Positions 2,593-36,576 of a stretch of DNA of 64,000 bases are shown here, in pieces. Made by a program: the position numbers and the translations under genes. The stretch's first letter is position 1. The number at the start of each line of letters is the position of its first letter. Source of the DNA: Thermogutta terrifontis (GTDB taxonomy: Bacteria; Planctomycetota; Planctomycetia; Pirellulales; Thermoguttaceae); assembly GCF_002277955.1 (NCBI RefSeq), contig NZ_CP018477.1, positions 248,001 to 312,000 on the forward strand, read 5' to 3'. The notes under the pieces were generated by a model. That model saw nothing but the letters and a program-made list of their open reading frames with translations, was not told where the DNA came from and made no database searches.

Positions 2593-2620
2593 GGTTCGCA
2601 GATCGCAGCCGGATTTTTTC

Positions 2621-2850
2621 GGAGGGGCACGCTTGTCGTGCCCGGCGACGAGGGATGGGTTATCAAATGGATGTCGGTCGGACCCGACAAGCGGGTCCCT
2701 CCGAGAAATTGTTTGGAGGGGCGCGCTTGTCGTGCCCGGTGACGGGGGAATGGATCATCGATCGGTGTTCATTGGACCTGACAAGCAGGTCCCTCCGGAA
2801 TTTTTTCGGACCGGAAAAGCGGACGTGACAAGCACGTCCCACCGGGCTGA
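2621..2850. repeat. Cluster of A-type paired-hairpin repeats
   Basis: Two complete units and one degenerate unit lie in tandem. Each has a GGAGGG-edged hairpin of the type GGGCACG/CGTGCCC or GGACCTG/CAGGTCC with a CTTGT/ACAAG loop, a 30-40 base spacer containing a GGATnATCC-like core, and an inverted partner ending CCTCCG. Units run 2621-2703, 2715-2798 and about 2810-2850. The cluster fills the spacer between folP and the moa operon. Confidence 0.85.
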
Positions 2851-7998: not shown

Positions 7999-8120
7999 GT
8001 CTCGGGCAGTCTTTGTGTTTTATCTATCTTGCCTTGTTCCCCGTCCCCGCCGTCTCGCTCGTTCCCACGTTCTTTCTAAAGGGGACGCGGACCCCACCAT
8101 GGGTTCGGGAGATTCAACCC

Positions 8121-8358
8121 GGCGGGACCTGCTCATCAGGTCCACTTTCGGAGGGACCCGCTTGTCGGGTCCGATGAACACCGACTGATGACCCATTCCC
8201 CTTCACCGGGCACGACAAGCGTGCCCCTCCGAGAAAATCCCGGAGGGACCTGCTTGTCAGGTCCGATGAACACCGATCATTGATCCATTCCCCGGTCACC
8301 GGGCACGACAGGCGTGCCCCTCCGAAAAAATTCCGGAGGGACCTGCTTGTCAGGTCCG
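8121..8358. repeat. Cluster of A-type paired-hairpin repeats
   Basis: Alternating GGACCTG/CAGGTCC (or GGACCCG/CGGGTCC) and GGGCACG/CGTGCCC hairpins, each edged by GGAGGG or CCTCCG and joined by near-identical spacers containing GATGAACACCGA. There are two full units plus half units at both ends. They lie just past the Moco operon. Confidence 0.85.
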
Positions 8359-8444: not shown

Positions 8445-8732
8445 AACGCATTGTGCCGTTACACGTAGCTGCTCTTTAAAAAGTGGGGAGGCGTCAGCCC
8501 TGCAGTGGGTTGAGAAAAACGACAGAGCAGCTCGCCGCATATCCCGCTCTTCATATCCTTCATATCGTTCGGCATTGAGACTACTACGAGACTGTTATTA
8601 GCAACATAGTCACATTTAATTTCCCTGCCGGTATCTATGAAATTTTTTGTTATGGACATCGCGACCACAGCGTAAAAGACGGATGGAAAACAACAAGTTC
8701 CCACGAAGAGTCGCAAGAACGTGGAGTCGCGT
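8445..8732. other. Spacer without a supported gene
   Basis: Short open frames on the minus strand (up to 97 codons) overlap here, but none has a ribosome-binding site, a recognisable motif or a domain. I see nothing else beyond the leader of the following secreted-protein gene. Confidence 0.5.
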
Positions 8733-10043
8733 ATGACACTCGGCCATCTCACAAACCGTTTCGTGCGTTTGGGGCTGCTTGTCGCTGTTTTGATCGGGGC
8801 AATCCATCAGAAGGCCAACGCGCAGGCTGTCGCAGTGGCCCCATCGGTGGAAGTCACGTCACCGCTCGATTTGGATCTGCCGGCTGTCATCCACAACATT
8901 CCTTCTCTCACCGATCGCCGTGAAGACTGGATCCGTGCCACTTTGGAACAACGCAACCCCATTGCAGAAGAGATCGGCGAAGAAGGTGCTCGCGCCTATG
9001 CGAAAAGCAGGGGTTATGAGCCGATTTTCGATGGCGTCGGACGAACCATCCCTCAAGGTCTGGACCAGGTCTATCGTGATCCCAGGACGGGTGAAATCGT
9101 GGTCATCGAGGCCAAAGGCGGGACGTCTCCGTTGGGTCGGGCATATGGCTATGAGCAGGGCACCGGTCAATGGGCTGTCAAGTCGGCCGAGCGAATGGCC
9201 ATCAATCCCAAAGCATCAGCGGTTGAGCGGAAGGCCGCGGAAGAGGTACTCAAGGCAGGTTTGAATAATAACCTTCGCGTTGAGGTGGTCCGCACCGAGC
9301 ACGTGCTGGGCCGACCTGGTCGGGTGATCCTGGAGTCCGTGCACAGGAACTCGGAATGTGCTGAAGAGGTCCGTGCGCTGGCACAGGCGGCCATGGAGCG
9401 TTTGCGCCTGACAGGACCCACGGTTGAGGAACTTCCGCGGCGGACAATGGTTTCTCGTGAGAACTCAGAAAAAGTGGGCAGTGTCGCCCGGGGCATGGAA
9501 ACGCTGACCAAGGCGCTCCCGGAGGCCGGTGAAGAGATTAAGCAGGCTGGTCGCGTGGGGCGAGGTGCGGTGGCGGCTGAGGAAGGGGCCCTGCAAGCGA
9601 CACGCGGAACTGCCCGGGCAGCGGAAGCCGTGGAAGTGGCGGCGACGGCCTCCAAGGCAGAACGTGCGATGACGGGCCTGGGAAAGGCGGCCAAGGTGGC
9701 GGGGCCTGTGGCGGTGGCGGTGGACGTGGGAGTCAGGATTTACCGTTCGCACGAAGTGGAAGAAGCCTATCAGAAGGGCGAAATCACCCGAGAGCAACGC
9801 AACCTGGAGCACGCCAAAAATGTGACAGGTTGCGTGGGCGGCTGGGCTGGTGCGTTGGCCGGTGCCGAAGCAGGAGGGAGCATTGGGGCCGCTATCGGCA
9901 CGGCAATCTGCCCCGGAGTGGGAACCGTCATCGGTGGTGCAGTCGGCGGAATCGCCGGGGCCATCGGGGGTTACTGGGCTGGTGAAAAGGCGGCCGAGGC
10001 CGGTACGGAAGCGGTCCTTGGCTCTTCAACAACCTCACGTTAA
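8733..10043 (+). CDS. Secreted protein with nuclease-like core and glycine-zipper tail
   Basis: A 436-residue protein of no family I can name with certainty. Residues 1-32 form a signal peptide: basic start, hydrophobic LGLLVAVLIGA, then a possible cleavage site at ANAQA. Residues about 60-165 hold a fold-suggestive core. GLDQVYR (D111), then GEIVVIEAKGG (E126, K128), then GYEQGTGQW match the D...ExK arrangement of restriction-endonuclease-fold toxins. A helical, Ala-rich middle follows. Residues about 365-420 are a glycine zipper (repeated GxxxG) that could insert in or associate with membranes. ATG at 8733 has GTGGAG upstream and puts the signal peptide at the start. GTG at 8721 is the alternative. 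A 43-codon membrane-protein gene follows after 14 bases. A role as exported nuclease toxin or DNA-uptake nuclease is inference. Confidence 0.7.
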   Translation: MTLGHLTNRFVRLGLLVAVLIGAIHQKANAQAVAVAPSVEVTSPLDLDLPAVIHNIPSLTDRREDWIRATLEQRNPIAEEIGEEGARAYAKSRGYEPIFDGVGRTIPQGLDQVYRDPRTGEIVVIEAKGGTSPLGRAYGYEQGTGQWAVKSAERMAINPKASAVERKAAEEVLKAGLNNNLRVEVVRTEHVLGRPGRVILESVHRNSECAEEVRALAQAAMERLRLTGPTVEELPRRTMVSRENSEKVGSVARGMETLTKALPEAGEEIKQAGRVGRGAVAAEEGALQATRGTARAAEAVEVAATASKAERAMTGLGKAAKVAGPVAVAVDVGVRIYRSHEVEEAYQKGEITREQRNLEHAKNVTGCVGGWAGALAGAEAGGSIGAAIGTAICPGVGTVIGGAVGGIAGAIGGYWAGEKAAEAGTEAVLGSSTTSR

Positions 10044-10189: not shown

Positions 10190-10257
10190 CTCATCCCCAC
10201 ACTTTTTATACCGACGCGGACCTCCACATCGGTTCGGGTAGGAGCGAGATTCAACCC

Positions 10258-10375
10258 GGAGGGACCTGCTTGTCGGGTCCGATGAACACCGACTGATGAC
10301 CCATTCCCCTTCACCGGGCACGACAGGCGTGCCCCTCCGATCCGGCGGTACGGCCAATTCATGACTTGCCCCTAC
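10258..10375. repeat. A-type repeat unit followed by a degenerate B palindrome
   Basis: One complete A unit (10258-10339) nearly identical to the 8121-8358 copies, including the GATGAACACCGACTGATGACCC spacer. A diverged B palindrome follows at 10347-10375, with centre AATTCATGACTT. Together they occupy the gap between the mini-membrane protein and the coiled-coil gene. Confidence 0.8.
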
Positions 10376-10524
10376 AACACTGTGCCGTGGCACGTCGCCG
10401 GTCTTTGCAAAAAAGTGGGGAGGGGGCAGGCTACCGCGTACTTGACGAGGTCTTTGCGAACGTTATATTGAAGGCGGCACTTTTCAGGATGGCCACACTC
10501 GGCGGTAAAACTGCCCATTGAAAT

Positions 10525-11055
10525 ATGATTCATGCGAAGGATCATTTGCACCAAGGGGACGTCTATTTTGACCAACAGAAGCGGGCAGCCGGATTTGTCC
10601 GCGGGAATAAACTGTCTATCGCCCTGCGGTACTCATCTCATGCAGAGTATGAGCAGGACTCGCCAAGCCGCACGGTGGCAGAGTTCGACGAGAGGTTGCG
10701 GGAATTCTTTCCCTGGACGCCTCCCACTAAAAAATCCACACCAAATATGAAGATGCCAGACGAATGGGAGGAATTAACGGCTATCAATGCGGACCTGCCC
10801 AAGCGTGTCGCTGCCCTTGAAGAAATTATTCGTCAGTATGAGCAGCAGGAAGCCGAGACGTTATTACAAATGCAGTATTTGCAGGACCAAGTAGCGGAAT
10901 TAACGAGACACATCGAGCAGTGGCATGTAAAAGCAGAAGATTTAATCCGAGAACAAAAGTACTGGAAACGAATAATCGCAGCCTCCAGCAGGAAATGGAA
11001 AAGCTGGGGCAGGCATTCGCGGAAGCCAAACGGCGCTGGTGGCGAAAGCTCTTAG
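10525..11055 (+). CDS. Coiled-coil protein, apparently frameshifted near its end
   Basis: No family is recognised. The first 70 residues are mixed. From about residue 75 the chain is a charged heptad-rich coiled coil (ADLPKRVAALEEIIRQYEQQ, then VAELTRHIEQW). After residue 143 the reading frame turns into an unlikely Arg/Lys/Trp/Ser tail. The neighbouring frame from 10959 continues the coiled coil as VLETNNRSLQQEMEKLGQAF, then ends in a basic RRWWRKLLGLPAC with a stop at 11070-11072. The switch falls on an A4 run at 10955-10958. One more A would restore a protein of about 182 residues. This may be a deletion, a sequencing error or slippage. It lies just upstream of the Cmr locus. Confidence 0.5.
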   Translation: MIHAKDHLHQGDVYFDQQKRAAGFVRGNKLSIALRYSSHAEYEQDSPSRTVAEFDERLREFFPWTPPTKKSTPNMKMPDEWEELTAINADLPKRVAALEEIIRQYEQQEAETLLQMQYLQDQVAELTRHIEQWHVKAEDLIREQKYWKRIIAASSRKWKSWGRHSRKPNGAGGESS

Positions 11056-11158: not shown

Positions 11159-11563
11159 ATGCCGGGATTATGGATTCTCAATTTCAGTCACCCTTTGACA
11201 CCGGAACAGAAGAAGCAAATTCGTGCGCTCACGGGTCAGCGGATCAGCAAGGTGATTGATCTGAAATGTCAGTTCGATCCACAGCAGCCGTTTGTTGACC
11301 AGATGCGCGCGTTGCTGGACCAAATTGAACTCACGTATGAACAATGGCAAACCTTGCCCATCGTGGTGAATCCGCCCTCTTTCGCTCCCATCGCCTGCCT
11401 GTTTCTGGCGGAGCTGCATGGAAGGGTGGGGCATTTTCCGGCCATCATGCGTCTGCGCCCCACGAGCGACGTTCCGCCCCAGTTTGAAGTGGCGGAAATC
11501 ATCAACCTGCAACAGGTGCGCGATCAGGCCAGGGAACGACGCATGAAAGAGACCGCCAGTTGA
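11159..11563 (+). CDS. csx15: Csx15-like CRISPR-associated protein
   Basis: A 134-residue soluble protein that resembles the Csx15 family attached to type III loci. Recognisable stretches are LNFSHPLTPEQ near the N-terminus, a central EQWQTLPIVVNPPSFAPIA, LAELHGRVGHFPAIMRLRP, and a C-terminal FEVAEIINLQQVRDQARERR. AAAGGA precedes the ATG by eight bases. The gene stands 170 bases before cmr2, ahead of the candidate cmr promoter, so it may be its own unit. The biochemical role of Csx15 is not established. The assignment rests on remembered family consensus and location. Confidence 0.65.
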   Translation: MPGLWILNFSHPLTPEQKKQIRALTGQRISKVIDLKCQFDPQQPFVDQMRALLDQIELTYEQWQTLPIVVNPPSFAPIACLFLAELHGRVGHFPAIMRLRPTSDVPPQFEVAEIINLQQVRDQARERRMKETAS

Positions 11564-11574
11564 GTGGCGACGGC

Positions 11575-11603
11575 TTGACATGATGGAGTCAATATGCCAG
11601 AAT
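11575..11603 (+). promoter_or_regulatory. Candidate promoter of the cmr operon
   Basis: A perfect TTGACA at 11575-11580 lies 17 bases before CAGAAT (11598-11603). It is just downstream of the csx15-like stop codon and about 130 bases before the cmr2 start, with no closer gene in between. Confidence 0.5.
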
Positions 11604-11734
11604 CACTGGCCAAACGAAGGGAAACATCTGCGGGGTAACAGGAATGACTCATCGACCATCGGCGGGCAGTCGTTTTCGAGGGCAGGTTCTTGAACGAGCC
11701 TGGGCTTTCCGTGCCGCTAAGCGAGGATAACACC

Positions 11735-13684
11735 ATGGATGATCGTGCGTTCATTGTTTTTTCCGTCGGGCCGGTCCAGTCCTTCATTTCTGCCGCGCGG
11801 ACACTGCGGGATCTGTGGACCGGCAGTTTCCTGCTGGCCTGGCTAACCCGTAAGGCCATGGAACCGATCTATTCAAAACACGGGGCGGCGGCTTTTATCG
11901 AGCCCGATATGAGCCGCGATCCCATGTCCCCGCAGAACCTGCGCAAGGAGCTTCGCTCCCCCTGCTTGCCGAACCGGTTCCTCGCTGAGGTTCCGGCCAA
12001 CGAGGCAGAGGCGCTCGCTCAGGCCTGCCGGGATGCTTTCGATAATGCGTGGCAAACTATTGCGGACAATGTGCGCCAGGCATTGCAGACGGAAATCGCC
12101 AAACTGAAGGGCGACGGAGCCGTGGAATGGGAGAGTTCAGTCGAGCGTTTGTGGAATGCCCAGGTTGACTCGTTCTTCGACGTGCGGGTGAGCGTTGTGC
12201 CCCGGGGAGCGATTCCAGGCGACGCGGTCAGGTCATTGCTCGGTGAGCGGGGAGAGTCAGGAGGCACCTGGGCCCACGCGTCAGCAGAAGACAGGCTGTG
12301 GACGGACCAGGCGGAACTGGCCGCCCGCGTCCACGCCACGCACAAGGTGATCAGAAAGGTCACCCGATATTCGCCGACACCGGACGCCCAGGGGATGTAT
12401 CCCGGCAAGTGCTCTCTGCTCGGAACTTACGAATATCTGGGACCTGCCGAGCTGACAAAGGCCGCCGCGTTCTGGCAGGTTCTCAGCGGCAAGAACGGGG
12501 TGAGTATTGGCGGGGTACGAATCCGCCCGGGCGAACGCCTCTGTGCGGTGAGCTTTGTCAAACGGTTTGCCTGGCCGGCCTATTTTGTGAACGAACTCGC
12601 GGTTGATCCCCGAAAGATGCGGTTGGAAGACCTGGCAACCGTCGCCGCTGCCGAATGGCTCAGCCACGAGCCGGAGCTTTCTCCCCAAACAGTCCGGGAC
12701 CAGCATGGCGTTTGGAGTGGCGAATGGCTCCACTGGGAGCGCCCCGAGCAGGATGAGGAGGAAGGGGCCTGTCCTCCGGATGTCTGGAAGCAGATTAAAA
12801 AGAAACGGGATAACCAGGGCAAGGCACCGGCCTATTATGCCGTGCTGATGATGGATGGCGACCGCATGGGCAAGCATCTTCGGGCAAAGCCCGGCCGCGA
12901 GCATCCCCGAACCATCAGTAAGGCCCTGATGACGTTTGCACTCAATCACGCTCCGAAAATTGTGGAAGACAATCACGGCGTTCTTGTGTACTGCGGTGGG
13001 GACGATGTGCTGGCGCTGCTTCCCACAACGAAGGTGATCTCCTGCGCCAGGGAACTCAACAAGGCCTTTCGGGAAGTGTGGGCTCGCGAGGTCCTAAAAG
13101 GACAGCCAGGAGACACCGCCACGCTCAGTGCCGGCATCGCCGTCGTCCACTACAAGGAAGACCTCCGCTTTGCCCTGGAAACTGCAAGGCAGGCTGAAAA
13201 GCATGCCAAAAACAACGGTCGGGATTTGGTCGCCATCACCGTCTGTCGCCGGTCGGGTGAACACACCGTAGCGCTTTGTCCCTGGCCCTTTCTGGACATC
13301 CTTCAGGGGTGGATCTCCGCCTTCACACCCAGCCAAGAGAGTCCGGCGGGGGCATCCGACCGCTGGGCACGCCATCTGTACCGTGACCTGCCTGTTTTGA
13401 AGGGGCTTCCCGTCGATGCGATGAAGGCCGAGATCCGTCGGCAGGTGGATCGCGCCGAAGAGTCGACGCGAAAGCGACTGTCACCCGAGGCACCCAAAAA
13501 GGCGGGGGCCAAAATCGTGGAACAACTGGAGCTTTTCGGCAGTTTGTGGGACCAGCGCTCACGGTCGCTTCCAAAAGCGGGGGCCACACCGGGCGCATCC
13601 GCCGGCCGAAATGGTCAACTTCTGGAAAACTTCCTCACCTTGTGCCAGACGGCATCGTTTTTGGCGAGAAGGAGGGATGAATGA
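11735..13684 (+). CDS. cmr2: Cas10/Cmr2, type III-B, lacking the HD domain
   Basis: Large subunit of the Cmr effector complex. It starts directly with the Cmr2 N-terminal segment (VFSVGPVQSFISAARTLRDLW), followed by a helical region. The palm/cyclase core has MDGDRMG at about 372-378 and YCGGDD with GGDD at 421-424, so synthesis of cyclic oligoadenylate on target-RNA binding is expected. A C-terminal helical domain follows. At 649 residues it is some 200 shorter than Cmr2 proteins that carry an N-terminal HD nuclease, and no HD motif is seen. Single-strand DNase activity is therefore probably absent. ATG at 11735 has GAGG nine bases upstream and starts at the family motif. Its stop overlaps cmr3 in ATGA. 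Confidence 0.93.
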   Translation: MDDRAFIVFSVGPVQSFISAARTLRDLWTGSFLLAWLTRKAMEPIYSKHGAAAFIEPDMSRDPMSPQNLRKELRSPCLPNRFLAEVPANEAEALAQACRDAFDNAWQTIADNVRQALQTEIAKLKGDGAVEWESSVERLWNAQVDSFFDVRVSVVPRGAIPGDAVRSLLGERGESGGTWAHASAEDRLWTDQAELAARVHATHKVIRKVTRYSPTPDAQGMYPGKCSLLGTYEYLGPAELTKAAAFWQVLSGKNGVSIGGVRIRPGERLCAVSFVKRFAWPAYFVNELAVDPRKMRLEDLATVAAAEWLSHEPELSPQTVRDQHGVWSGEWLHWERPEQDEEEGACPPDVWKQIKKKRDNQGKAPAYYAVLMMDGDRMGKHLRAKPGREHPRTISKALMTFALNHAPKIVEDNHGVLVYCGGDDVLALLPTTKVISCARELNKAFREVWAREVLKGQPGDTATLSAGIAVVHYKEDLRFALETARQAEKHAKNNGRDLVAITVCRRSGEHTVALCPWPFLDILQGWISAFTPSQESPAGASDRWARHLYRDLPVLKGLPVDAMKAEIRRQVDRAEESTRKRLSPEAPKKAGAKIVEQLELFGSLWDQRSRSLPKAGATPGASAGRNGQLLENFLTLCQTASFLARRRDE

Positions 13685-14880
13685 GTCGGCAACTCAAACA
13701 TTTGGGGGCCCTGCTCGAGCCGCTGGACGTCCTCTTTTTCCGTGATGGTCGCCCATTTGCAGCGGCGACGCGTGGCTCCTCGGGCTTGCCTACCCCTCAA
13801 ACCACGGCGGGGGCCATCTGGGCGAGTCTCCTTCGGGCCATGGGCTGCAATTTCGACAAAATACGTGATGTTTACATTCGCGCAGCCGAAAATCATCGCC
13901 TGGAAGAAAGCGACTATCAGGCGGTGTGGCGCCAGGGCCTCCAGGAAGCCGGAGCACCTGAGTGGTTCTTTTCCATGACCATTCGGGGTCCGTGGTTGGT
14001 CAGGAGGCGTGGCGGGGATAGGAAAGACCCTTCGGACGATAAGCCCGATCCTGCGCACTGGGAACTCCTGTTTCCCATGCCGGCCACTGTGTTCTCGTTC
14101 AAAAAGAGTGAGCTGGCAGAACGGCCGGAAATCTGGTTGGGGCAACCGCTTTCCCGGAATCAGACCCTGCCCGGCTGGAAGCCTCCTCGGGCCGGCATGC
14201 GGCCGATCTGGGTGAGCACTCGAGAAGATGTGGAGACCTGCAAGGGGTTTCTCACCGCGGCCGGGATGCAGAAGTTTCTTCAGAGCAAACCGTCCCAGAA
14301 CTTCAACAAAGAGGACTTCGTCTCGGAGAGCGAGTTGTTCGGTCACGACAATCGCACCGGAATTGGAATCAATCCTCAGCGACTCACTTCCGAGGAACAC
14401 CAGATCTACGCGGCGAGCTTCCTCGCTTTGAAACAGGAGGTGGCCTTTTACGTGGAGCTGCATCTGCCGCCCGAGGGCGAATCGGTGTGGAAATCGGTGA
14501 GTTTTCTCCGCTGGGGCGGGGAAGGCAAACAGGTGGCGGTCAAGCATTTCGACAAACCGCTCGAATTTCCCAGGGCCGTTCCTCAAAACGGGCAAAAACC
14601 CCTGCTCGTGCTGACGACACCTGGAATCTTCGAGGACGGATGGTATCCCCGGTGCCTGGCGGGGGAACTGGTGGCGGCCGCTGTGCCGGGTGAGGTGGCC
14701 GTCTCCGGCTGGGACCTCGTGCGCCGGGGACCCAAGCCCACACGTTTTGCCGCCTCGGCCGGTTCCGTGTATTTCCTCGAACGCCTTCCGGAAACACTTT
14801 CGGATCCGTTGTCTGATAAGCCTTTGGACCAGCAACAGGGTTGGGGCTGCTTTTTACAAGGAGTTTGGAACGATGTCTGA
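13681..14880 (+). CDS. cmr3: Cmr3, crRNA 5'-handle-binding subunit
   Basis: RAMP-superfamily subunit that pairs with Cmr2 and caps the crRNA 5' tag in the Cmr complex. The opening LGALLEPLDVLFFRDGRPFAA is the characteristic Cmr3 start (EPLDvLFFRDGrPF). It is followed by LPTPQTTAGAIWASLL and, later, LLVLTTPGIFEDGW. The 399-residue length is normal. It begins inside the cmr2 stop codon with GGAGGG upstream, and overlaps the start of cmr4. The C-terminal end reads LDQQQGWGCFLQGVW, the glycine-containing finish typical of Cmr3. Confidence 0.92.
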   Translation: MSRQLKHLGALLEPLDVLFFRDGRPFAAATRGSSGLPTPQTTAGAIWASLLRAMGCNFDKIRDVYIRAAENHRLEESDYQAVWRQGLQEAGAPEWFFSMTIRGPWLVRRRGGDRKDPSDDKPDPAHWELLFPMPATVFSFKKSELAERPEIWLGQPLSRNQTLPGWKPPRAGMRPIWVSTREDVETCKGFLTAAGMQKFLQSKPSQNFNKEDFVSESELFGHDNRTGIGINPQRLTSEEHQIYAASFLALKQEVAFYVELHLPPEGESVWKSVSFLRWGGEGKQVAVKHFDKPLEFPRAVPQNGQKPLLVLTTPGIFEDGWYPRCLAGELVAAAVPGEVAVSGWDLVRRGPKPTRFAASAGSVYFLERLPETLSDPLSDKPLDQQQGWGCFLQGVWNDV

Positions 14881-15823
14881 CGCGACAAAAACCACCACAC
14901 AGGGCGCACTGTTGTTCATCCATGCCCAGACGGCGTTGCATCCCGGCTCGGGAACGGCCCTGGGTACTGTCGATCTTCCCGTCCAACGGGAACGGCACAC
15001 CGGCTGGCCGAACATCGCGGGCTCAGCCCTCAAGGGTGTCCTCCGCGATGCCTGCCGTGAGAAGATTCATCAGGCCACCGGGCAGCCACGCAAGGTGGTC
15101 AACGAGGAACATCCGGACATCGTCACCATCTTTGGACCGGGCAAAGTGGACGAGAGCAGCGCCCACGCAGGCGCCCTCACCGTCAGCGATGCCCGCATTC
15201 TCGCCTATCCCGTGCGTTCGCTCCGTGGGGTGTTTGCCTGGGTGACGTGCCGCGGCGTTCTGGAGCGTTTGTGCCGCGACCTGGCCCTGATCGGCATGCC
15301 GCTTCCGTCGCTTCCCACAACCTGGCCGGCCGAACACAAGGCCCTCGTTCCCACGAACTCACCGCTCATGGTGGGGCAGTCGAATCAGGCGACTGTGGTC
15401 CTCGAGGAGTTTGATTACAAAGTGATTGGCCCAAGCGACGGCGTGGCCGAATGGCTGGCGAATCATGCGGTGGCTGACAAGTTTGCCCAAGAGCGTATGA
15501 AGAGCCACCTTGTCGTGCTCTCTGACGATGATTTCACCCATTTTGTCCGTAACGCCACGGAGATCGTTGCCCGAATCGCCCTCGATTACGAACGGAAAAC
15601 GGTTAAGGAGGGCGCCCTGTTTTATCAGGAATTTCTCCCGGCCGAGACCCTCATGTACTCTGTGCTGCTGGCCAATTCCAGCCGGAACGAAAGAGCTTCC
15701 ATGGATGCTGCGGAGGTGCTCGGCAAAGTTCGGCAGTGCCTGGAAGATGTCCGCGTGTTGCAGATCGGGGGTGACGAAACCACGGGAAAAGGCCTCTGTG
15801 CGGTGCATGTTCTGCAGCAGTGA
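14873..15823 (+). CDS. cmr4: Cmr4, backbone RAMP with target-RNA nuclease site
   Basis: Repeating backbone subunit (Cas7 family) that measures and cuts target RNA at 6-nt intervals. The N-terminal LHPGSGTALGTVDLPVQRE contains the catalytic aspartate at D34, in the thumb-loop position of known Cmr4 proteins. HTGWPNIAGSALKGVLRD is the RAMP glycine-rich loop. The C-terminal IGGDETTGKGLCAV matches the family G-rich motif. The frame is open 183 bases further upstream inside cmr3, but ATG at 14873 has GGAG upstream and gives 316 residues, the usual size. The overlap with cmr3 is 8 bases. Confidence 0.94.
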   Translation: MSDATKTTTQGALLFIHAQTALHPGSGTALGTVDLPVQRERHTGWPNIAGSALKGVLRDACREKIHQATGQPRKVVNEEHPDIVTIFGPGKVDESSAHAGALTVSDARILAYPVRSLRGVFAWVTCRGVLERLCRDLALIGMPLPSLPTTWPAEHKALVPTNSPLMVGQSNQATVVLEEFDYKVIGPSDGVAEWLANHAVADKFAQERMKSHLVVLSDDDFTHFVRNATEIVARIALDYERKTVKEGALFYQEFLPAETLMYSVLLANSSRNERASMDAAEVLGKVRQCLEDVRVLQIGGDETTGKGLCAVHVLQQ

Positions 15824-15875
15824 ACCGCTTCACTTATCAGTCAGGCCTATGGAACAAAAAAAGGAGTCAGGGGAT

Positions 15876-16310
15876 ATGGCGAACGCAACAAAACCCGAGA
15901 AAAAAACGCTCGATCAACGTCGGGCAGAACATGCATGGCAGGCCGTTCAGGCGGTGAATCCGAATAAAAAAGATCAAGAGGCGAAAAAGAAGTTTGAAGA
16001 GTTTTGTAGGCAGGCCAAAAAGTTGCCGGTGCGGATCATTGCCTCCGGATTGGGACAGGCCCTGGCGTTTTTGAAAGCAAAAAACTACGCGCCGAAGCTG
16101 CTCGTGGCCCTGGGAGATTGGGTGCTCGATAAACGCATCAACCCGGATAGCAAGAAACCAGAACCAGACGACATGGCCCTCTTGAAAGCCGTTGTCGAAG
16201 GTGATGCCGAGTTCCTCCGTTGGGCCACCGACGAAGTCCTGGCCTATCTCCAGTGGTTAGTCCGATTCGCGGATGCAGAAGGATCCGAGGGCAGCGCAAC
16301 GACCGACTGA
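15876..16310 (+). CDS. cmr5: Cmr5, small subunit
   Basis: Small alpha-helical subunit (Cas11 type) lining the inner filament of the Cmr complex. The 144-residue chain opens with KKTLDQRRAEHAWQAVQ, the Cmr5 signature around an RAxxAW core. It continues with KLPVRIIASGLGQALAFLKAK, and ends in an unconserved acidic tail. ATG at 15876 has AGGAG nine bases upstream. ATG at 15849 would add nine residues. The fusion gene follows after 12 bases. Confidence 0.92.
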   Translation: MANATKPEKKTLDQRRAEHAWQAVQAVNPNKKDQEAKKKFEEFCRQAKKLPVRIIASGLGQALAFLKAKNYAPKLLVALGDWVLDKRINPDSKKPEPDDMALLKAVVEGDAEFLRWATDEVLAYLQWLVRFADAEGSEGSATTD

Positions 16311-16322
16311 GGAGAAAATCCT

Positions 16323-18677
16323 ATGGCGATGATCGTTCCCCTCCCCAAATCTGTTCGAGACCTGGTGCGTGAGAACACCCACCTGGGGTTACAGCTCGAC
16401 AAATACGTCCAGTCATGGAATGAGGAGCTGTTCTCAAAACCTGGGGACGACACCGGGAAGCTCTCGGAGCGGGTCCAAAAGCCTACCGTTGAACTGATCG
16501 CCCGCAAGTCCAGAACCGAGCCACCGGGATTAAACTACGCTGGTTTATTCGCGCGGTGGCAGGCCGTCGCGGCGGCGAGGGGAGCAATGACCTTCAAAGC
16601 TAAAACCGTCGGGCCGTTGACACTCCATCTCGCCCGGGCATCGGCGCTCGAAAACGCCGGCATTTGTTTGCATCCGATTTATGGGTTTGTCTACTTACCA
16701 GGAACCGGCCTCAAAGGAATGGCCCGCGCGTTTGCCGAAACGGTCTGGCTGCCCACGCAAACCGATCAGAAAAAGGCGTGGCAACAGATCGAGGACGTCT
16801 TCGGCTGGGCTCCGAATCCCGACCGCGTCAAACAGATCAGGGATCCCCATCATCCTGCCGAAGTCCGCCACGATCCGAGCGACCCCAGAACAGAGATCAC
16901 AGCCTCGTCAGGACAGATTGTCTTTCTGGACGCCTGGCCCGAGAAATGGACGCCGTTAGTCGTTGATATATTGAATAACCACCATTTCAGTTATTACCAG
17001 AATCAGGAACCACCGGGAGACTGGGATTCGCCCCGTCCGGTGTATTTCCTGGCGGTTTCTGCCGGTCACACGTTCTGTTTCGCACTGGCCAAACGCCGGG
17101 CGGATGTCCCGGATGAACTCCTTCAACTGGCGACCGAATGGTTGGTGGGCGCCCTTGAGTACGAAGGGGCCGGTGCAAAAACGGCCTCCGGGTATGGATC
17201 GTTCAAGCTAACCGAGACGCCAAAGCTGTTCTCCTCGGATAACATCGATAAAACCTGGAAAGGGGCCCTGGCCAAGCAAAAACGGGCAGAATTCACCTGC
17301 ACGCTGGAACTCGTCACGCCGGCGTTTCTGGCGGGACCCTTGCAAAAGGAGGAGGACTGCGAACTCCGGCCGGCAACGCTGCGGGGCATGCTCCGCTGGT
17401 GGTGGCGGACCATGCACGCCGCCCACGTGGACGCCGCCACTCTCTATCGGATGGAATCCGCGATTTGGGGCGATACAAATTCCTGCGGCGCCGTCCGCGT
17501 TACGGTGGAGCCGTTAGACAACGTAAAGCCTGTTTTATTCGATAAAAACAAGGTAAGAGACGAAAATAAACTGCCTGCTCCGCCGAATAAAAGGACTACG
17601 CAAGGGCTTAATTATTTCACTTTCGGCATGGATGACATGCGCAGGGAGAATGGCCAGCGCCAGCGTTATCAGCGCTATTATATAATGCCGGGTGCAAAAT
17701 GGCGGGTGACGATGAGAGTTCGTCCGAAGATATATGAAATAAAAAATGATAAAGGCATCGTTATTGAAAAATGGGACCTATCAGTTTCTGATGTCCTGCC
17801 CCAGGCTCAGGCGGCGTTGTGGTTGCTCTGTTACTACGGAGGGGTTGGCTCCAAGTCGCGGAAGGGTTTTGGTTGTTTCGATGTGCCCGCCGAACTTTCC
17901 AGTTGGAACCTGGAAAAATGTAAAGAAGTCGCCGCGAAGTTTCGCAAGGCATGCAACCGGTCAACTCAAAAAGGGTGCGACGCACCGACTCTGGAAACGA
18001 TGATTTCGGGTGAGGAGCTCCCGGTTGGCTGGAAAAATGTCTGGTGGATCCTGGACCGTATCGGTGCCGCCGCTCAAGCTTTTGCCCAACAGTACGCGAA
18101 AAATGCTCAAAAACTGGCGTTGGGACTGCCGAGAAATGTACGCGGCCGATTTAACCTAGGCGAACACGTTGCAAAGACGAACCGTCACGCATCGCCGCTC
18201 ATCTTTCATGTGGGACGTCAAAATGGGAATTATGTTGTGCGCTGTGTCGGGTTTCCTTCCCCAGAGTTACCGGCCGATCGCACGCGAAAGGCAAGCCAGA
18301 ATTTTCTTACTCAGGCGATACAAACAATAACTGCCAATCTGAAAAGTGCGTTTTCGAACTCACAGGGGGCCGCCATGCAGCCGGCGCGGTTCCCCACTGG
18401 TCAGCCTGGCCAAAGTCCAGGGGCTGGGGCTCGGCCCACCAGCGCCCCCGCTCCTTCTCTCCCTACTTTGAAAAGTGGCGACGAAGTGGAAGTCACAATC
18501 GTGGAAGATCCCAAAGGCAAAGGCAGATTGTTCGCAAAACACGAGGCTACAGGTCTCGTCGGAAATATCATTGATCCGAATAATGTGCCCGATAAAACAA
18601 TTGGAGCAAAAATACACGTGTTTATTCACTCGATCAACATGAAGCAAAAACAGATTCAATTCAAAGCTAAAAAATAG
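16323..18677 (+). CDS. Cmr6-Cmr1 fusion with a C-terminal OB-like domain
   Basis: A single 784-residue chain joining two Cmr subunits normally made separately. Residues about 60-300 are Cmr6-like: ALENAGICLHPIYGFVYLPG leads into GTGLKGMARAFAE (about 127-139), and the domain closes with GAGAKTASGYGSFKL. Residues about 320-560 are Cmr1-like: LVTPAFLAG, then ELRPATLRGMLRWWWRTM (about 346-363), and GGVGSKSRKGFGCF (about 505-518). A helical region and a Pro/Ala/Gly linker follow (about 680-715). Residues 716-784 resemble an S1/OB fold (GDEVEVTIVEDPKGKGRLF through VFIHSI). No separate cmr1 or cmr6 is nearby, which fits the fusion serving both roles: Cmr6 in the backbone and Cmr1 at the crRNA 3' end. 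It is the last gene of the tight cmr2-3-4-5 run. Confidence 0.9.
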   Translation: MAMIVPLPKSVRDLVRENTHLGLQLDKYVQSWNEELFSKPGDDTGKLSERVQKPTVELIARKSRTEPPGLNYAGLFARWQAVAAARGAMTFKAKTVGPLTLHLARASALENAGICLHPIYGFVYLPGTGLKGMARAFAETVWLPTQTDQKKAWQQIEDVFGWAPNPDRVKQIRDPHHPAEVRHDPSDPRTEITASSGQIVFLDAWPEKWTPLVVDILNNHHFSYYQNQEPPGDWDSPRPVYFLAVSAGHTFCFALAKRRADVPDELLQLATEWLVGALEYEGAGAKTASGYGSFKLTETPKLFSSDNIDKTWKGALAKQKRAEFTCTLELVTPAFLAGPLQKEEDCELRPATLRGMLRWWWRTMHAAHVDAATLYRMESAIWGDTNSCGAVRVTVEPLDNVKPVLFDKNKVRDENKLPAPPNKRTTQGLNYFTFGMDDMRRENGQRQRYQRYYIMPGAKWRVTMRVRPKIYEIKNDKGIVIEKWDLSVSDVLPQAQAALWLLCYYGGVGSKSRKGFGCFDVPAELSSWNLEKCKEVAAKFRKACNRSTQKGCDAPTLETMISGEELPVGWKNVWWILDRIGAAAQAFAQQYAKNAQKLALGLPRNVRGRFNLGEHVAKTNRHASPLIFHVGRQNGNYVVRCVGFPSPELPADRTRKASQNFLTQAIQTITANLKSAFSNSQGAAMQPARFPTGQPGQSPGAGARPTSAPAPSLPTLKSGDEVEVTIVEDPKGKGRLFAKHEATGLVGNIIDPNNVPDKTIGAKIHVFIHSINMKQKQIQFKAKK

Positions 18678-18876
18678 AAAGCCTGTAACATTTCGGAAAA
18701 ATGTCCATTCCTTTAAAGCCTGTGAAGAACGTGCGATGTTCGTAAAGCCAAGGCGTTGGCACGAATTGGCGGCTAGGGCTGCGGCGTCCGCCTGTTTCGG
18801 TTTGCCCTGGCCGTCTTGTCTGTTAAAGCGACCGAGTATCAAGTTTTTGCAGGGTTCCAGATCGGGCGCATAGGGT

Positions 18877-20334
18877 ATGCAACAGCTACCCAATGCTATG
18901 GTCGTCCTCTCCAGTGAACAGCTCTGGCCGAATATCCTCGGTTTGGTCCATTGGCATAAACATGAGGGCGGCGTCAAGGATTTATGCATTTATTACACGA
19001 ACAATCCTGTCAGATCAAAGCAGCCCGCCGAACGCTTTGCGGCATTTGCCAAAAAGGTTTTTCCACCGATCCATGTTCATCTTCCAGAAGCTCCCGGCGG
19101 CACGTTGCCACAGGATGTGTTGGGCCAGATCCTCGCCTGGCAAAAGCAGCTTCCGGCAAGGCGGTGGATCATCAATGCCACGGGCGGACTCAAGCTCATG
19201 TTCTATGGAGCCGTTCAGGCCAAGGAGTTGCCGAATACGGAAGTCGTTTACGGAGAGCTTTCCGGTGAATGGTTCCGCTGGAGAAAAACCGCCCACGGTG
19301 AACAACTGGAATCGTTGTCAATAGATCGTGCGGAAACCGACTATATTCCCGTCAGATATCTCGTGCAGGCGCAGTCGGGAGTGGCCTTCAACCGTACATG
19401 GCAGTGTCAAAAGCCCGAACCACTGCCTGTCGCACAAGTTGTTCAGGACGGAATCGAGACGGGCTGGGACTGGCCTCGGATGTTCGCCAGGATTGGCCGG
19501 CCGAATGAGGGTCAGGCAGGATTTCTCTTCGAAAAATTCGTCGCTGCCGTGCTTCTCGAAATGGGTATCCCGCAGGTAGACGTTAATGCGAAGCTCGGCG
19601 AAGGCAATGGTCAATCCGTGCAGGAAATAGACGTGATCGCGAACTATCGTGGCCGAATTTTAATCTTCGATTGCAAGCTCCGCGTGGAAAGCGAGGAAGG
19701 CCGCCGGGTGGAGCCCCTTGCCGTCCAGATTCGTCAGGCGGCCGCCATCCGCCGCGATATCGGGGGAATCGGGGCGATGCTCCTGATGATCAGGCCGGGT
19801 CGAGCATTCCGTGAGCAGGAAAAATTGCTGGCGAGGGAACTGGGAGTGGATATACTCGACAGCGCCGCAACATTGAATTTCTTTCGCGAATTGGCCCGTT
19901 TTTGTGGATTGCCAGGAGAACTTCCCGCGTCCTTGCAAAAGGCCCAGGATTTACTCGACGGAGCGAAGTCCCAGGGCTATCAGGAGGCATTGGCAAAATC
20001 CAGCTTTTTAGGCGCTACCCCCGGTGCGGAGCCGCGGGGTGTGTTGATCCGCTTGGAAAGTCACCTCAACAAATACATGGAGGAGACAGCTCAGGATTGG
20101 GCCGTCTATCAGATGGGACGTCACATCTATTTATACTACAAAATTCCTCCAAACGTTCCCGCCGCGGTATGCCTCAATCGGTGGCAGCAAATCTGCGATG
20201 AAGTGGCTGAAATCAAACCTCTCTGGACGGCAAAAGGGGGCAAAGTGGCGCTCGCCAGACTTATTCCCAAGGTCGATACTGACCAACTGAGAATGTTTTT
20301 GGGACGCCACCGAGGTCAGAAACTTCTCCAGTAG
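18877..20334 (+). CDS. Card1/Can2-like CARF-domain nuclease
   Basis: A candidate cyclic-oligoadenylate-activated effector of the type III system. The N-terminal 150 residues form a CARF-like Rossmann domain, with INATGGLKLMFYGA at about 99-112 matching the NxTGGxKxM ligand loop of the DUF1887/Card1 group. From about 215 a PD-(D/E)xK nuclease domain follows: GFLFEKFVAAVLLEMG with E219, QEIDVIANYRGRILIFDCKL with D252 and D265-C-K267. The usual ExK Glu is Asp here. A C-terminal region of about 120 residues is extra. It stands 199 bases after the Cmr6-Cmr1 gene. Card1/Can2 proteins cut DNA and RNA when cA4 binds. Ligand and substrate are inferred from that family. Confidence 0.8.
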   Translation: MQQLPNAMVVLSSEQLWPNILGLVHWHKHEGGVKDLCIYYTNNPVRSKQPAERFAAFAKKVFPPIHVHLPEAPGGTLPQDVLGQILAWQKQLPARRWIINATGGLKLMFYGAVQAKELPNTEVVYGELSGEWFRWRKTAHGEQLESLSIDRAETDYIPVRYLVQAQSGVAFNRTWQCQKPEPLPVAQVVQDGIETGWDWPRMFARIGRPNEGQAGFLFEKFVAAVLLEMGIPQVDVNAKLGEGNGQSVQEIDVIANYRGRILIFDCKLRVESEEGRRVEPLAVQIRQAAAIRRDIGGIGAMLLMIRPGRAFREQEKLLARELGVDILDSAATLNFFRELARFCGLPGELPASLQKAQDLLDGAKSQGYQEALAKSSFLGATPGAEPRGVLIRLESHLNKYMEETAQDWAVYQMGRHIYLYYKIPPNVPAAVCLNRWQQICDEVAEIKPLWTAKGGKVALARLIPKVDTDQLRMFLGRHRGQKLLQ

Positions 20335-20469
20335 CCCCTCCATTACGCTGCACAATATCGGAATAACAGACGTTTCATTGTGTTATCATATTGAGTATAT
20401 TCGAATAAGCCCCGACCATGGCTACTCTAACGGGCAAATGGCGTGGCGCAACGCGCCGGGCAAAATCAT

Positions 20470-20960
20470 TCAAGGCGGTTTCTTTTCGGAGCTGAACACG
20501 GCCAATTCGGCCAGACCCACGTTTTGGGTTCCAGGTTTGGTTGCCGTGACTAAAAAGGCCAGCCATTTGACCTCGCCCGGCGGAAAGACGATTCCCCCAC
20601 CTTGACGCGCATTGTCGAGAAGTTCGGGCGTCTCGATCGTGGTGCCATCGCTGAAAATCAAGAGCCTCCTTGGAATCTGGTCAAGTGAGTTTGGGCGATC
20701 GAAGAGCCAGACGCGGTCCACCGCTACTGGTTCGGCCACGGGCGGCAAATAAACGCAGTATCACCTTCTTCGGAAGATGCCCAGGCCCTGGCTGGGCTTT
20801 GAGGAAAGCCCGCCACGACGCTGTTGCAGGCGGCCTCGCAGCGGTAGCCTGGATAGCTTGAACTCGCCGCCCCGGATGCTGGCCTGGCGAGGTTGTGCCG
20901 GGCGGAGAGCGGAGAATCTGGGCATACGCCTCCAGGAGAAAAGCCGTATTTCTGCAACAC
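20470..20960 (-). pseudogene. Decayed discoidin-like carbohydrate-binding domain
   Basis: Two neighbouring minus-strand frames together spell one beta-sandwich domain. From 20960 down to 20724 one frame reads NLARPASGAASSSYPGYRCE to EEGDTAFICRPWPNQ-stop. From about 20735 down to 20470 another continues EPVAVDRVWLFDRPNSLDQI, FSDGTTIETPELL, and VTATKPGTQNVGLAELAVF. This is the layout of the discoidin-like domain found at the C-terminus of planctomycete and actinobacterial PIG-L deacetylases and glycosidases. One missing base around 20731-20737 causes the TAG stop. No catalytic domain remains. It is probably the remnant of a larger gene. Confidence 0.55.
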
Positions 20961-20990
20961 ATGGCACCACGGCCAAATCGATTGAATCGC

Positions 20991-21020: not shown

Positions 21021-21092
21021 TGGATCTGAATGTGTTGTACGCCCGGCTCATCAATTGTTGTAAGTGCCACATGTCCAGGTGTGTTCGGACTT

Positions 21093-21272
21093 CGGAGGGA
21101 CCCGCTCGTCGGGTCTGTTTTTTCGGAGGGACCCGCTCGTCGGGTCCGCGTAATTGCAAGGACCCGCTTGTCGGGTCCGGTAAACACCGATCGACGGCCC
21201 ATTCCCTTTCCCCGGGCACGACGAGCGTGCCCCTCCGGAATAATCTCGGAGGGACCCGCTTGTCAGGTCCAT
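21093..21272. repeat. Cluster of A-type paired-hairpin repeats
   Basis: Four GGACCCG/CGGGTCC-type hairpins, one with GGACCCG/CAGGTCC arms, and one inverted GGGCACG/CGTGCCC partner. They are edged by GGAGGG and CCTCCG. The first two copies stand head to tail only about 30 bases apart, unlike the alternating order elsewhere. Confidence 0.85.
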
Positions 21273-21354
21273 TCCAGGTTCTATGCGAGGTTTTCGAGGT
21301 TTTCCCTTCTAACCGGCATGCAACGTTTTTCTTCCAGAACAGTGTGGCGAAATC

Positions 21355-30560: not shown

Positions 30561-30730
30561 CGTGAAGGATGCTGAAAAATGGCAAGAGGATGCAATATTT
30601 CAGGGCGAGGTGCCCTCTTGCCTCATGGTACACCGACCGGGCAAAAACCCAAAGCGTCTGACCCATCCCCACTTTTCCTCTGCCAACGGGAACCTTCACA
30701 GGGGTTCAAATGGGAGCGAGATTCAACCCG

Positions 30731-31105
30731 GCGGGACCTGCAGAATTTTTCGGAGGGGCACGCTTGTCGTGCCCGATGACGGCGCAATGGATGATCCAAC
30801 GTCAAACGGCGGACCTGACAGGCAGGTCCCTCCGAGAAATCGTCCGGAGGGGCACGCTTGTCGTGCCCGGCGCAGGCAAATGGAATACCGAACGTTGGTA
30901 AACGGACTCCGGGATTTTTCAGAGGGGCACGCTGGTCGTGCCCGATGGCCCTTCCCGCTGCGGCGTCGATAGGGGCGATTCATGAATCGCCCCTATCTAA
31001 AACCCACGTGAATTGACAGTGGATTATCCAGGGTCGATAAGCGGACGTGACAGGCAGGTCCCTCCGAGAAATTGTCCGGAGGGGCGCGCTTGTCGTGCCG
31101 GTTCG
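30731..31105. repeat. Cluster of A-type repeats enclosing a B palindrome
   Basis: It starts with a half hairpin at 30731 and continues with GGGCACG/CGTGCCC and GGACCTG/CAGGTCC copies in both orientations to 31105. A perfect 30-bp B variant, half site GATAGGGGCGATTCA, sits at 30968-30997. This fills most of the gap between the ligase-like gene and ilvN. Confidence 0.85.
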
Positions 31106-32983: not shown

Positions 32984-33541
32984 CACCGGGCACGACAGGC
33001 GTGCATTTGCGAACGATTTCTTGGTAGGACCCGCTTGTCGGGTCCGCCTTTCCGGAGGGACCTGCTCGTCAGGTTCGCGTCCCAATTTTGGATGATCCAT
33101 CCCAATTCACCGGGCACGACAAGCGTGCCCCTCCGACCCCACGGAGGGACCTGCTTGTCAGGTCCGTCGTTCAACGTTTGATCATCCATTGCCTTTTTCC
33201 GGTGACTGAAGTCTCGCGCTCCATATGGAGTGCGGCGATTTATCGCCGCTTTCTGGTGAAGGCTTTAGCCTTCACAACGTTGTCGTCGGGCAGGATAGAA
33301 ACGGAGTGCCGGTCGGGGTGGGACCGAACCTTGCAATCCGTGCAATGTAAGGACGCTTTCCACGGTCCGCTTTTCCGACGTTGGATAAACCATGCTTCCT
33401 CACCGGGCACGACAAGCGTGCCCCTCCGACCCCTCGGAGGGACGTGCTTGTCACGTCCGTCGTTTGACGTTGGATCATCCACTGGCGTTTACCGGGGACT
33501 GAAGTCCCGCGCGGAAAGCGGTGCTAAAGCCTCGCACTCCA
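32984..33541. repeat. Mixed A- and C-type repeat island
   Basis: A-type hairpins at 32984-33166 and 33403-33466 alternate orientation. A C-type element at 33201-33275 strings four palindromes together: GACTGAAGTC, CTCCATATGGAG, GCGGCGATTTATCGCCGC and GTGAAGGCTTTAGCCTTCAC. A partial C element (GGGGACTGAAGTCCC and following) lies at 33492-33541. The island fills the ilvC-hypE gap. Confidence 0.85.
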
Positions 33542-36244: not shown

Positions 36245-36503
36245 GGTAGGGGCAATTCATGAATTGCCCCCTACCAGGGAGCAGCTTTCGTGATTGCGGC
36301 AAAACAACACTCACCGCCAAGGTGGTGAAGGCTAAAGCCTTCACCAAAAAGCGGCGATAAATCGCTGCACTCCATATGGAGCGCGGGACTTCAGTCCCCG
36401 GTGAAAGAGAATGGATGATCGAACGTTGCACGGCGGACCTGACAAGCAGATCGCTCCGGAAGAGGTTCCTTCGGCTCGGAGGGGCACGCTTGTCATGCCC
36501 GGT
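36245..36503. repeat. B palindrome, C four-hairpin string and A repeat in a row
   Basis: The B copy (36245-36275) carries one extra C in its right arm. The C element (36324-36401) is an inverted copy of the one at 33201: GGTGAAGGCTAAAGCCTTCACC-type hairpin, GCGGCGATAAATCGCTGC, CTCCATATGGAG, then GGGACTTCAGTCCC. An A unit follows at 36436-36503. The island lies behind the ffh stop. Confidence 0.85.
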
Positions 36504-36576
36504 GAAACTTTTGGGAGACTGCGTGAACCTCAGCGCAATCGCTTGGGGCGAAGCTGCGCGGCGTTGCGCGAAAGTG

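What the first reader, a model, noticed from the sequence alone, without database searches (positions are those of the whole stretch)
16323..18677. Natural Cmr6-Cmr1 fusion with an added OB-like domain
The sequence shows a Cmr6-type GTGLKG loop and closing GAGAKTASGYGSF, then a Cmr1-type LRGMLRWWWR and GSKSRKGFG, then an S1/OB-like end, all in one frame with no stop. Cmr6 and Cmr1 sit next to each other at the crRNA 3' end of the complex, so a fusion would fix their 1:1 ratio. The OB domain could add RNA binding. I do not know of this three-part architecture being characterised.
Basis: partly seen in the sequence, partly recalled or inferred. Interest (0 to 1): 0.75.

Follow-up and report, generated by a model that had tools for sequence, protein, structure and literature searches.

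The report
Fused end-cap of RNA-targeting CRISPR complex
In this bacterium and in many unrelated ones, two usually separate parts that cap one end of an RNA-sensing CRISPR complex are made as one protein with an extra domain of a nucleic-acid-binding type; a fusion of the two parts is already in print for a cyanobacterium, so this looks like an overlooked, widespread variant and not a new kind of machine.

Summary
Window 16323-18677 (+) is one open 784-aa frame. Residues 99-295 match the Cmr6 model and 328-520 the Cmr1 model, both above NCBI's cut-offs. A confident AlphaFold model puts 3-295 on solved Cmr6 and 321-674 on solved Cmr1. Residues ~713-784 fold like an S1-type OB domain. The gene follows cas10-cmr3-cmr4-cmr5 and precedes a CARF-PDDEXK gene.

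It is no one-off. In 80 loci kept from a scan of 84,980 species, 64 ORFs join both halves, in 17 named phyla; 45 of the 57 not cut at the 3' end carry the OB tail. The Cmr1 halves form one clade, and so do nearly all Cmr6 halves. The same tail ends 4 of 28 Cmr6-only ORFs and 0 of 30 Cmr1-only ORFs, so Cmr1 was probably inserted between Cmr6 and its tail.

A Cmr1/Cmr6 fusion is in print for Microcystis, where the complex was purified (PMC11855584). 0 of 20 cyanobacterial fusions tested carry the tail. I found no description of the OB-tailed form, in an open-access library only.

Verdict: real; new variant of a known kind.

The parts
16323..18677 (+). cmr6-cmr1-OB fusion gene, 784 aa
16329..17207 (+). 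Cmr6 half (residues 3-295)
   Evidence: TIGR01898 8.7e-32 over 99-295; fold match 3x1l_H Z 15.6, 4.0 A over 223 residues
17208..17282 (+). linker between the halves (residues 296-320); no in-frame ATG around the junction
17283..18344 (+). Cmr1 half (residues 321-674)
   Evidence: TIGR01894 7.7e-13 over 328-520; fold match 9l7c_A Z 24.5, 3.6 A over 288 residues, and 4l6u_A Z 22.2
18345..18458 (+). stretch before the OB domain (residues 675-712; pLDDT under 50 at 694-712)
18459..18677 (+). S1-type OB domain (residues 713-784) and stop
   Evidence: blocks from 721 on at pLDDT 89-97; domain folded alone, pLDDT 85.9: Foldseek best 2k52 E 4.6e-4, VIA best Z 9.2
17517..18890 (+). segment that differs from Thermogutta sp. 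MAG-77 (L017) while both flanks are 84-89% identical
11159..11563 (+). csx15, 134 aa
   Evidence: NF040560 1.2e-53
11735..13684 (+). cas10/cmr2, 649 aa; GGDD at residue 421; no HD family among the Pfam hits
   Evidence: TIGR02577 1.1e-61; Pfam
13681..14880 (+). cmr3
   Evidence: TIGR01888 2e-39
14873..15823 (+). cmr4
   Evidence: TIGR02580 1.6e-75
15849..16310 (+). cmr5
   Evidence: TIGR01881 5.6e-17
18877..20334 (+). CARF-PDDEXK gene (Card1-like by label), 485 aa
   Evidence: PDLC01880 CARF4--CARF_PDDEXK 2.1e-14; Pfam CARF_Card1 only 0.33, below cut-off

Best explanation
The gene makes a single-polypeptide end cap for a type III-B (Cmr) CRISPR complex. Its N-terminal half is Cmr6, its middle is Cmr1, and it ends in an S1-type OB domain. 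It should replace the usual Cmr6-Cmr1 heterodimer at the crRNA 3' end, where pairing with target RNA begins. The OB domain, on a stretch of low predicted order, most likely touches single-stranded RNA there (the crRNA 3' tail or the incoming target). Target binding would then switch on Cas10, which here keeps the cyclase motif GGDD and shows no HD nuclease family, so cyclic oligoadenylate would activate the neighbouring CARF-PDDEXK nuclease. Shown: the fused frame, its family matches and predicted folds, its operon, its conservation, and the lack of a separate cmr1 or cmr6 beside it. Inferred: assembly, cap position, OB contact with RNA, and signalling. By descent, Cmr1 was probably inserted between Cmr6 and an OB tail that Cmr6 already had.
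For: Profiles: Cmr6 and Cmr1 models both above cut-off; both match 54 of 54 aligned fusions at E 0.001 or better. Structure: pLDDT 88.7, pTM 0.84; 321-674 = Cmr1 Z 24.5 and 3-295 = Cmr6 Z 15.6; tail like S1/OB. Context: cas10-cmr3-cmr4-cmr5-fusion-CARF order. Of 67 loci with a fused ORF, 65 have no other Cmr6- or Cmr1-like ORF (score over 25) in the DNA held; the other two hold pieces of broken fusion genes. Among the 64 scan loci with a fusion, 24 hold an array-like run of repeats; downstream gene clusters occur in 19, 19 and 9 loci, of which one member each was scanned and named CARF-HEPN, Cas1 and Cas6; a fourth, in 8 loci, looks like Cas2 by eye. GGDD in 50 of 50 complete Cas10 ORFs over 550 aa in fusion loci. 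Cap position, 1:1 ratio and need for target binding: PMC8376896 passages. A fused Cmr1-6 assembles with Cas10, Cmr3, Cmr4 and Cmr5 in E. coli: PMC11855584 section 8. The OB tail, by a profile trained on fusions only, ends 4 of 28 Cmr6-only ORFs and 0 of 30 Cmr1-only ORFs.
Against: No experiment on this protein. The OB profile was trained on 46 fusion tails, so the count 45 of 57 is partly circular. 12 of the 57 lack the tail in the same ORF: L070, L077 and L080 are broken or short (the second piece of L070 does carry it); L035, L048, L052, L056 and L061 end in other sequence; L037, L041, L058 and L082 have only 39-45 residues past residue 640. So the OB domain cannot be essential to every fusion. 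Its fold match is modest (Z 9.2 at best; unmatched models reach 7-8 by the tool's note) and Pfam gives only weak S1-type hits. Some of the 30 Cmr1-only ORFs are fragments, and near-duplicates are counted in both sets. No CRISPR array or cas1 lies in the window; cas2 and cas6 were not searched for there. Spread of a mobile OB domain would look much like insertion of Cmr1.
Confidence: 0.85

Rival explanations
1. The fused frame is cut by a protease, or an internal start also makes free Cmr1, so that the working complex holds separate Cmr6 and Cmr1.
For: The linker is short and variable (median 15 residues, range 4-79, n 65). Two Defluviicoccus-type loci keep a fusion-type cmr1 as a separate gene right after cmr6.
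Against: 52 of 65 fusions have no in-frame ATG near the junction, 1 of 65 has an ATG with a Shine-Dalgarno-like 4-mer, and the window has none (GTG and TTG starts were not counted). The tagged Microcystis Cmr1-6 was purified with four further bands, its partners.
Confidence: 0.06
2. The OB tail is not an RNA-binding part of the cap but a protein-protein or stabilising domain, or an exchangeable appendage under selection by phage inhibitors.
For: 12 of 57 fusions lack this tail in the same ORF. Window and L017 differ in the Cmr1 C-terminal part plus tail, with both flanks 84-89% identical. Some OB tails end in basic R/K-rich runs while others do not.
Against: Many of the best fold matches (ribosomal S1, NusA, eIF2alpha, RNase R) are RNA-handling proteins (that their S1 domains bind RNA is recalled). 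The tail is conserved in most members.
Confidence: 0.35
3. The window fusion and the cyanobacterial Cmr6-Cmr1 fusion descend from one fusion event, the cyanobacterial branch having lost the OB domain.
For: Same order of halves in Synechocystis and Nostoc; the AU test does not reject one clade of both on the Cmr6 half (p 0.33).
Against: Both cyanobacterial halves score better against the stand-alone profiles than against the fusion profiles (Cmr1 1.8e-15 against 2e-9; Cmr6 1.3e-29 against 8.7e-22), though the make-up of the sets affects such scores. The best Cmr6-half tree does not join them.
Confidence: 0.25
4. Sequencing or assembly artefact, or one duplicated RAMP family read as two.
For: None found.
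Against: Same single frame in dozens of independent genomes; two different families by profile and by fold.
Confidence: 0.01

Closest known systems
Microcystis aeruginosa FACHB-524 Cluster 4 'Cmr1-6' (Zeng 2025, PMC11855584)
   Same: Cmr1 and Cmr6 domains in one protein of a type III-B complex; purified from E. coli with Cas10, Cmr3, Cmr4 and Cmr5; anti-phage activity.
   Different: The sections I read mention no OB domain and no domain order. I did not have its sequence, so its lineage was not tested here.
Cyanobacterial Cmr6-Cmr1 fusions (Synechocystis pSYSA, Nostoc 7524; the name III-Bv for a Synechocystis system comes from the title of Behler 2018, seen in reference lists only; that it means this locus is recalled)
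   Same: Order Cmr6 then Cmr1 in one frame, in a III-B operon; 37 of 194 sampled genomes match the Nostoc protein, 19 of them over nearly its whole length.
   Different: 601-702 aa; 0 of 20 carry the OB tail (Synechocystis itself read by eye); distant in sequence.
Archaeoglobus/Pyrococcus Cmr6 and Cmr1 (3x1l, 9x25, 9l7c, 4l6u, 4w8x)
   Same: Fold of each half.
   Different: Separate proteins; none of the 10 PDB sequences matched covers both halves.
'CSD domain-containing protein Cmr6' (9arw, 9z7q) and 'Cmr1-MntA' (9z7q)
   Same: By their deposited names, caps with extra domains are already in solved complexes.
   Different: Two proteins; the Cmr6 match covers chain residues 88-375 of 376, so any extra domain would be N-terminal.
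Type III systems with Csx10 and an S1/OB domain (Makarova 2011, PMC3150331, passages)
   Same: An S1/OB domain fused in a type III effector system.
   Different: Another subtype; no Cmr6-Cmr1 fusion in the passages seen.
gRAMP/Cas7-11 (III-E) and III-D subunits
   Same: Weaker fold matches across both halves (7y81 Z 11.0, 6.6 A over 470; 8s9t Z 10.7, 5.2 A over 360). That these hold several Cas7-like units in one chain is recalled.
   Different: Not the Cmr6-Cmr1 cap.

Membership tests
Type III-B (Cmr) CRISPR system | Cas10/Cmr2 with palm GGDD, Cmr3, Cmr4 and the signature subunit Cmr5 in one operon | tested here: met
   All four above the NCBIfam cut-offs; GGDD at residue 421
Type III-B (Cmr) CRISPR system | Cmr6 and Cmr1 subunits | tested here: met
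   Both in the fusion
Type III-B (Cmr) CRISPR system | Own CRISPR array and adaptation genes nearby (not required of III-B; recalled) | tested here: not met
   No array by my k-mer scan of the window; both cas1 genes of the genome lie elsewhere, with arrays in L124, L125 and L126. cas2 and cas6 not searched
Cmr6 family | Above-cut-off match to TIGR01898 and the Cmr6 fold | tested here: met
   110.9 bits against 51.1; 3x1l_H Z 15.6
Cmr1 family | Above-cut-off match to TIGR01894 and the Cmr1 fold | tested here: met
   49 bits against 28.65; 9l7c_A Z 24.5. Pfam Cmr1_like_C only 15.1 against 27
Cmr1 family | Binds crRNA 3' end and target RNA | not testable with these tools
   No assay; the paper I wanted (PMC5737701) is not held
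S1/OB domain | Five-stranded OB barrel of S1 type | tested here: met
   Five strands; best Foldseek 4.6e-4, 4 matches at 0.001 or better; best VIA Z 9.2, 2.4 A over 68 residues. Top rows include eIF2alpha, NusA and ribosomal S1; that the matched part is their S1 domain is recalled
S1/OB domain | Sequence match to Pfam S1 or CSD above the curated cut-off | tested here: inconclusive
   Weak S1-type hits only, best 0.008, in a few of 49 members
Cyanobacterial Cmr6-Cmr1 fusion lineage | Shared descent of both halves | tested here: inconclusive
   Separate in the best Cmr6-half tree; AU p 0.33; profile scores favour separate origin; no Cmr1-half tree with cyanobacterial rows was built
Cyanobacterial Cmr6-Cmr1 fusion lineage | No OB tail | tested here: not met
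   The window has the tail; 0 of 20 cyanobacterial fusions do

The most novel reading that the evidence does not exclude
A widespread, unrecognised form of type III-B immunity in which the seed-end cap is one chain with Cmr1 nested inside a Cmr6-OB protein. The OB domain guides target RNA onto the exposed crRNA 3' end, and the Cmr1-OB part is swapped between lineages as a cassette, perhaps to escape phage inhibitors.
Probability: 0.3. Interest if true: 0.65.

Novelty: new variant of a known kind. Interest (0 to 1): 0.5.

Why it matters
Cmr1 and Cmr6 hold the crRNA end where target pairing starts (PMC8376896). A naturally tethered cap gives a five-protein complex that should be simpler for structure work and sensing tools, and a direct test of what the cap does. 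NCBI's Cmr6 model matches all 54 aligned members, so such proteins may be labelled 'Cmr6' and Cmr1 counted as missing; in Microcystis the PADLOC tool did not predict Cmr1 (PMC11855584, section 6). Surveys of III-B diversity may therefore undercount Cmr1.

Tried and rejected
Artefact or single-family reading: rejected. Internal ATG start for free Cmr1: not supported. Phage origin: no relative in phage records or viral contigs (39 pattern matches, none confirmed). Plasmids: 0 of 32 matching records cover 80% of the query; the 20 listed cover at most 36%. CRISPR array in the window: none by my scan; the largest repeat families are dispersed elements. My regex for the Cas10 HD motif found none in 50 of 50, including ~900-aa Cas10s that may well have HD, so it says nothing. 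The Cmr4 catalytic-loop regex matched 43 of 60 and was not pursued. The PDB search with the OB profile gave only chance-level hits. Literature: all ten searches cover an open-access library; Behler 2018 and PMC5737701 are not held. Trees: the careful Cmr6 tree used 18 fused rows that I picked for spread plus the window, left out L063, L086 and L109, and came from a set without L078 and L080 and the two plasmid cyanobacterial rows (8 cyanobacterial rows cut anew were used, Nostoc among them); in its groups I labelled L008, itself fused, as 'unfused' because of its Cmr6 type. L107 is the same sequence as L023. L083-L095 came from a scan aimed at the fusion and L098-L112 from hits I chose, so they are no census of stand-alone genes. 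In one search at most two candidates per genome were scored.

Full report
The observation. The window carries one ATG-started open frame at 16323-18677 (+), 784 aa, without an internal stop. The window is positions 248001-312000 of a one-contig genome of 4,810,751 bases. The nearest relative with a name is a Thermogutta MAG (L017), so the organism is a Thermogutta-like planctomycete; that name is inferred.

What the parts are. NCBIfam gives Cmr6 for residues 99-295 (8.7e-32) and Cmr1 for 328-520 (7.7e-13), both above the curated cut-offs; a PADLOC Cmr1 model extends to residue 639. PDB sequence matches agree, and none of the 10 matched PDB sequences covers both halves. An AlphaFold model from 54 aligned fusions has mean pLDDT 88.7 and pTM 0.84. 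It matches Archaeoglobus Cmr1 over 321-674 (Z 24.5, 3.6 A, 288 residues) and Cmr6 over 3-295 (Z 15.6, 4.0 A, 223 residues). The tail, folded alone (pLDDT 85.9), is closest to MJ1198 and to entries of eIF2alpha, NusA, ribosomal S1 and RNase R, which carry S1-type OB domains (recalled). The match is modest: best Foldseek E 4.6e-4, best Z 9.2, where unmatched models reach 7-8. Pfam gives the tail only weak S1-type hits.

The operon. Upstream lie csx15, cas10 (649 aa, GGDD, no HD family found), cmr3, cmr4 and cmr5; downstream is a CARF-PDDEXK gene. No array was seen in the window and the two cas1 genes lie elsewhere in the genome, as do arrays, so the crRNAs presumably come in trans.

How widespread. 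Of 60 genomes (own included), 11 match: 7 with one frame across both halves, 1 cut by a contig end inside the Cmr1 half, 2 with separate cmr6 and cmr1, and 1 fragment. Of 392 genomes of the phylum, 25 match, 3 of them (own included) with one match across both halves (at most two candidates per genome scored). A scan of 84,980 species kept the best 80 of 100 confirmed loci. In these, 64 ORFs match both halves: Planctomycetota 22, Pseudomonadota 7, Rhodothermota 6, Acidobacteriota 6, Bacillota 3, two each in Latescibacterota, Binatota and Bacteroidota, one each in nine more phyla, three Sericytochromatia and two unclassified. Most are MAG contigs, so single assignments may be wrong; seven ORFs are cut at the 3' end and L063, L070, L077 and L080 are broken or short. 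Of 67 loci with a fused ORF (adding Synechocystis and two fetched planctomycete stretches, one the same as L023), 65 have no other Cmr6- or Cmr1-like ORF in the DNA held, which at many contig ends is short. All 54 fusions aligned match both NCBIfam models at E 0.001 or better. 24 of the 64 loci hold an array-like run of repeats. Downstream gene clusters occur in 19 loci (one member scanned: CARF-HEPN), 19 (Cas1), 9 (Cas6) and 8 (Cas2 by eye, not scanned).

The tail. 45 of the 57 fusion ORFs not cut at the 3' end carry the OB tail; the profile was trained on 46 such tails. The 12 others: three broken or short, five ending in other sequence, four with hardly any tail. The same OB tail ends 4 of 28 Cmr6-only ORFs, none of them in the training set (L101 4e-32, L098 5e-22, L088 4e-21, L105 4e-7), and 0 of 30 Cmr1-only ORFs, some of which are fragments. 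The simplest story is that Cmr1 came to lie between Cmr6 and an OB tail that Cmr6 already had.

Trees. In the Cmr1-half tree 68 rows form one clade with SH-aLRT 100: 64 fused, two unfused Defluviicoccus-type genes, the fusion of G050, and L076, cut by a contig end. In the Cmr6-half tree a branch with SH-aLRT 95 sets 28 stand-alone rows and the fused L078 apart from the other 64 fused rows, half of one broken gene (L063) and two distant cyanobacterial rows. In a careful tree the 19 fused rows used form one clade at 99/98. The exceptions are informative. G050 (L008, L149) joins a stand-alone-type Cmr6 to a fusion-type Cmr1 in a cas10-cmr3-cmr4-cmr5 operon without another cmr1 in its 11.9-kb contig. 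L078 has a fusion-type Cmr1 with a Cmr6 half on a very long branch next to the stand-alone ones. Two Defluviicoccus-type loci (L079, L081) have cmr6 followed at once by an unfused fusion-type cmr1, plus another cmr1 ahead of cas10. So the Cmr1 part seems to move between systems.

A recent exchange. Window and L017 are 89% identical at 11491-17516 and 84% at 18891-20965, but between these points, from about residue 398 to the end of the gene, identity falls to 33-58% per 100 bases.

Mechanism. In Thermus Cmr a Cmr1/Cmr6 heterodimer caps the crRNA 3' end, one copy each, and target pairing starts there (PMC8376896, passages). In Microcystis a fused Cmr1-6 co-purifies with Cas10, Cmr3, Cmr4 and Cmr5, and the complex inhibits T4 in E. 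coli (PMC11855584, abstract and sections 6, 8, 10). By analogy the window protein is a one-piece cap; the OB domain probably touches RNA at that end. Both steps are inferred. An internal ATG start for free Cmr1 is not conserved.

Novelty. A protein with Cmr1 and Cmr6 domains is in print for Microcystis, and fusions are visible in Synechocystis and Nostoc, where a PADLOC 'Cmr6' model of 499 positions reaches across both halves. Of 194 genomes sampled from the phylum of a cyanobacterial locus, 37 match the Nostoc protein, 19 nearly full length; 0 of 20 (these 19 and Nostoc) carry the OB tail. Whether that lineage arose separately is open. Ten literature searches found no description of the OB-tailed form, in an open-access library only. 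Hence: new variant of a known kind, real and widespread, of moderate interest.

Noticed in passing
window 17517-18890 against L017: Probable allelic exchange inside the fusion gene: the Cmr1 C-terminal part plus OB tail differs while the flanks are 84-89% identical.
   Followed up: partly
L079 and L081: Defluviicoccus-type loci with two cmr1 genes: one of stand-alone type ahead of cas10, one of fusion type directly after cmr6, with a short non-OB tail.
   Followed up: partly
L123 (own genome, 1.54-1.56 Mb) and L124 (4.733-4.753 Mb): Two more type III loci in the same genome: one with a Csx11-like and a Cmr4 gene, one with Csx10-like, Csx7-like tandem RAMP and TIGR03986-like genes, Cas3 and an array (several of these hits below the curated cut-offs).
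   Followed up: no
window 2607-2845, 8109-8357, 10246-10378, 21091-21275, 30718-31105, 33020-33512, 36246-36504, 38384-38612, 42072-42432: Families of dispersed repeats (GGAGGGACCTGCTTGTCAGGTCC-like, with palindromic cores by eye) at many places in the window.
   Followed up: no
window 8721-10043 and 10525-11055: Two unassigned ORFs upstream of the operon: 440 aa with a glycine-rich C-terminal part, and 176 aa with weak coiled-coil-type hits.
   Followed up: no
L035, L048, L052, L056, L061: Fusions whose C-terminal tail is other, unrelated-looking sequence; the end of the protein may be a site of domain exchange.
   Followed up: no
L063 and L070: Fusion genes broken into two frames in the assembly; L063's neighbours are in pieces too. 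Decay or poor assembly not told apart.
   Followed up: no
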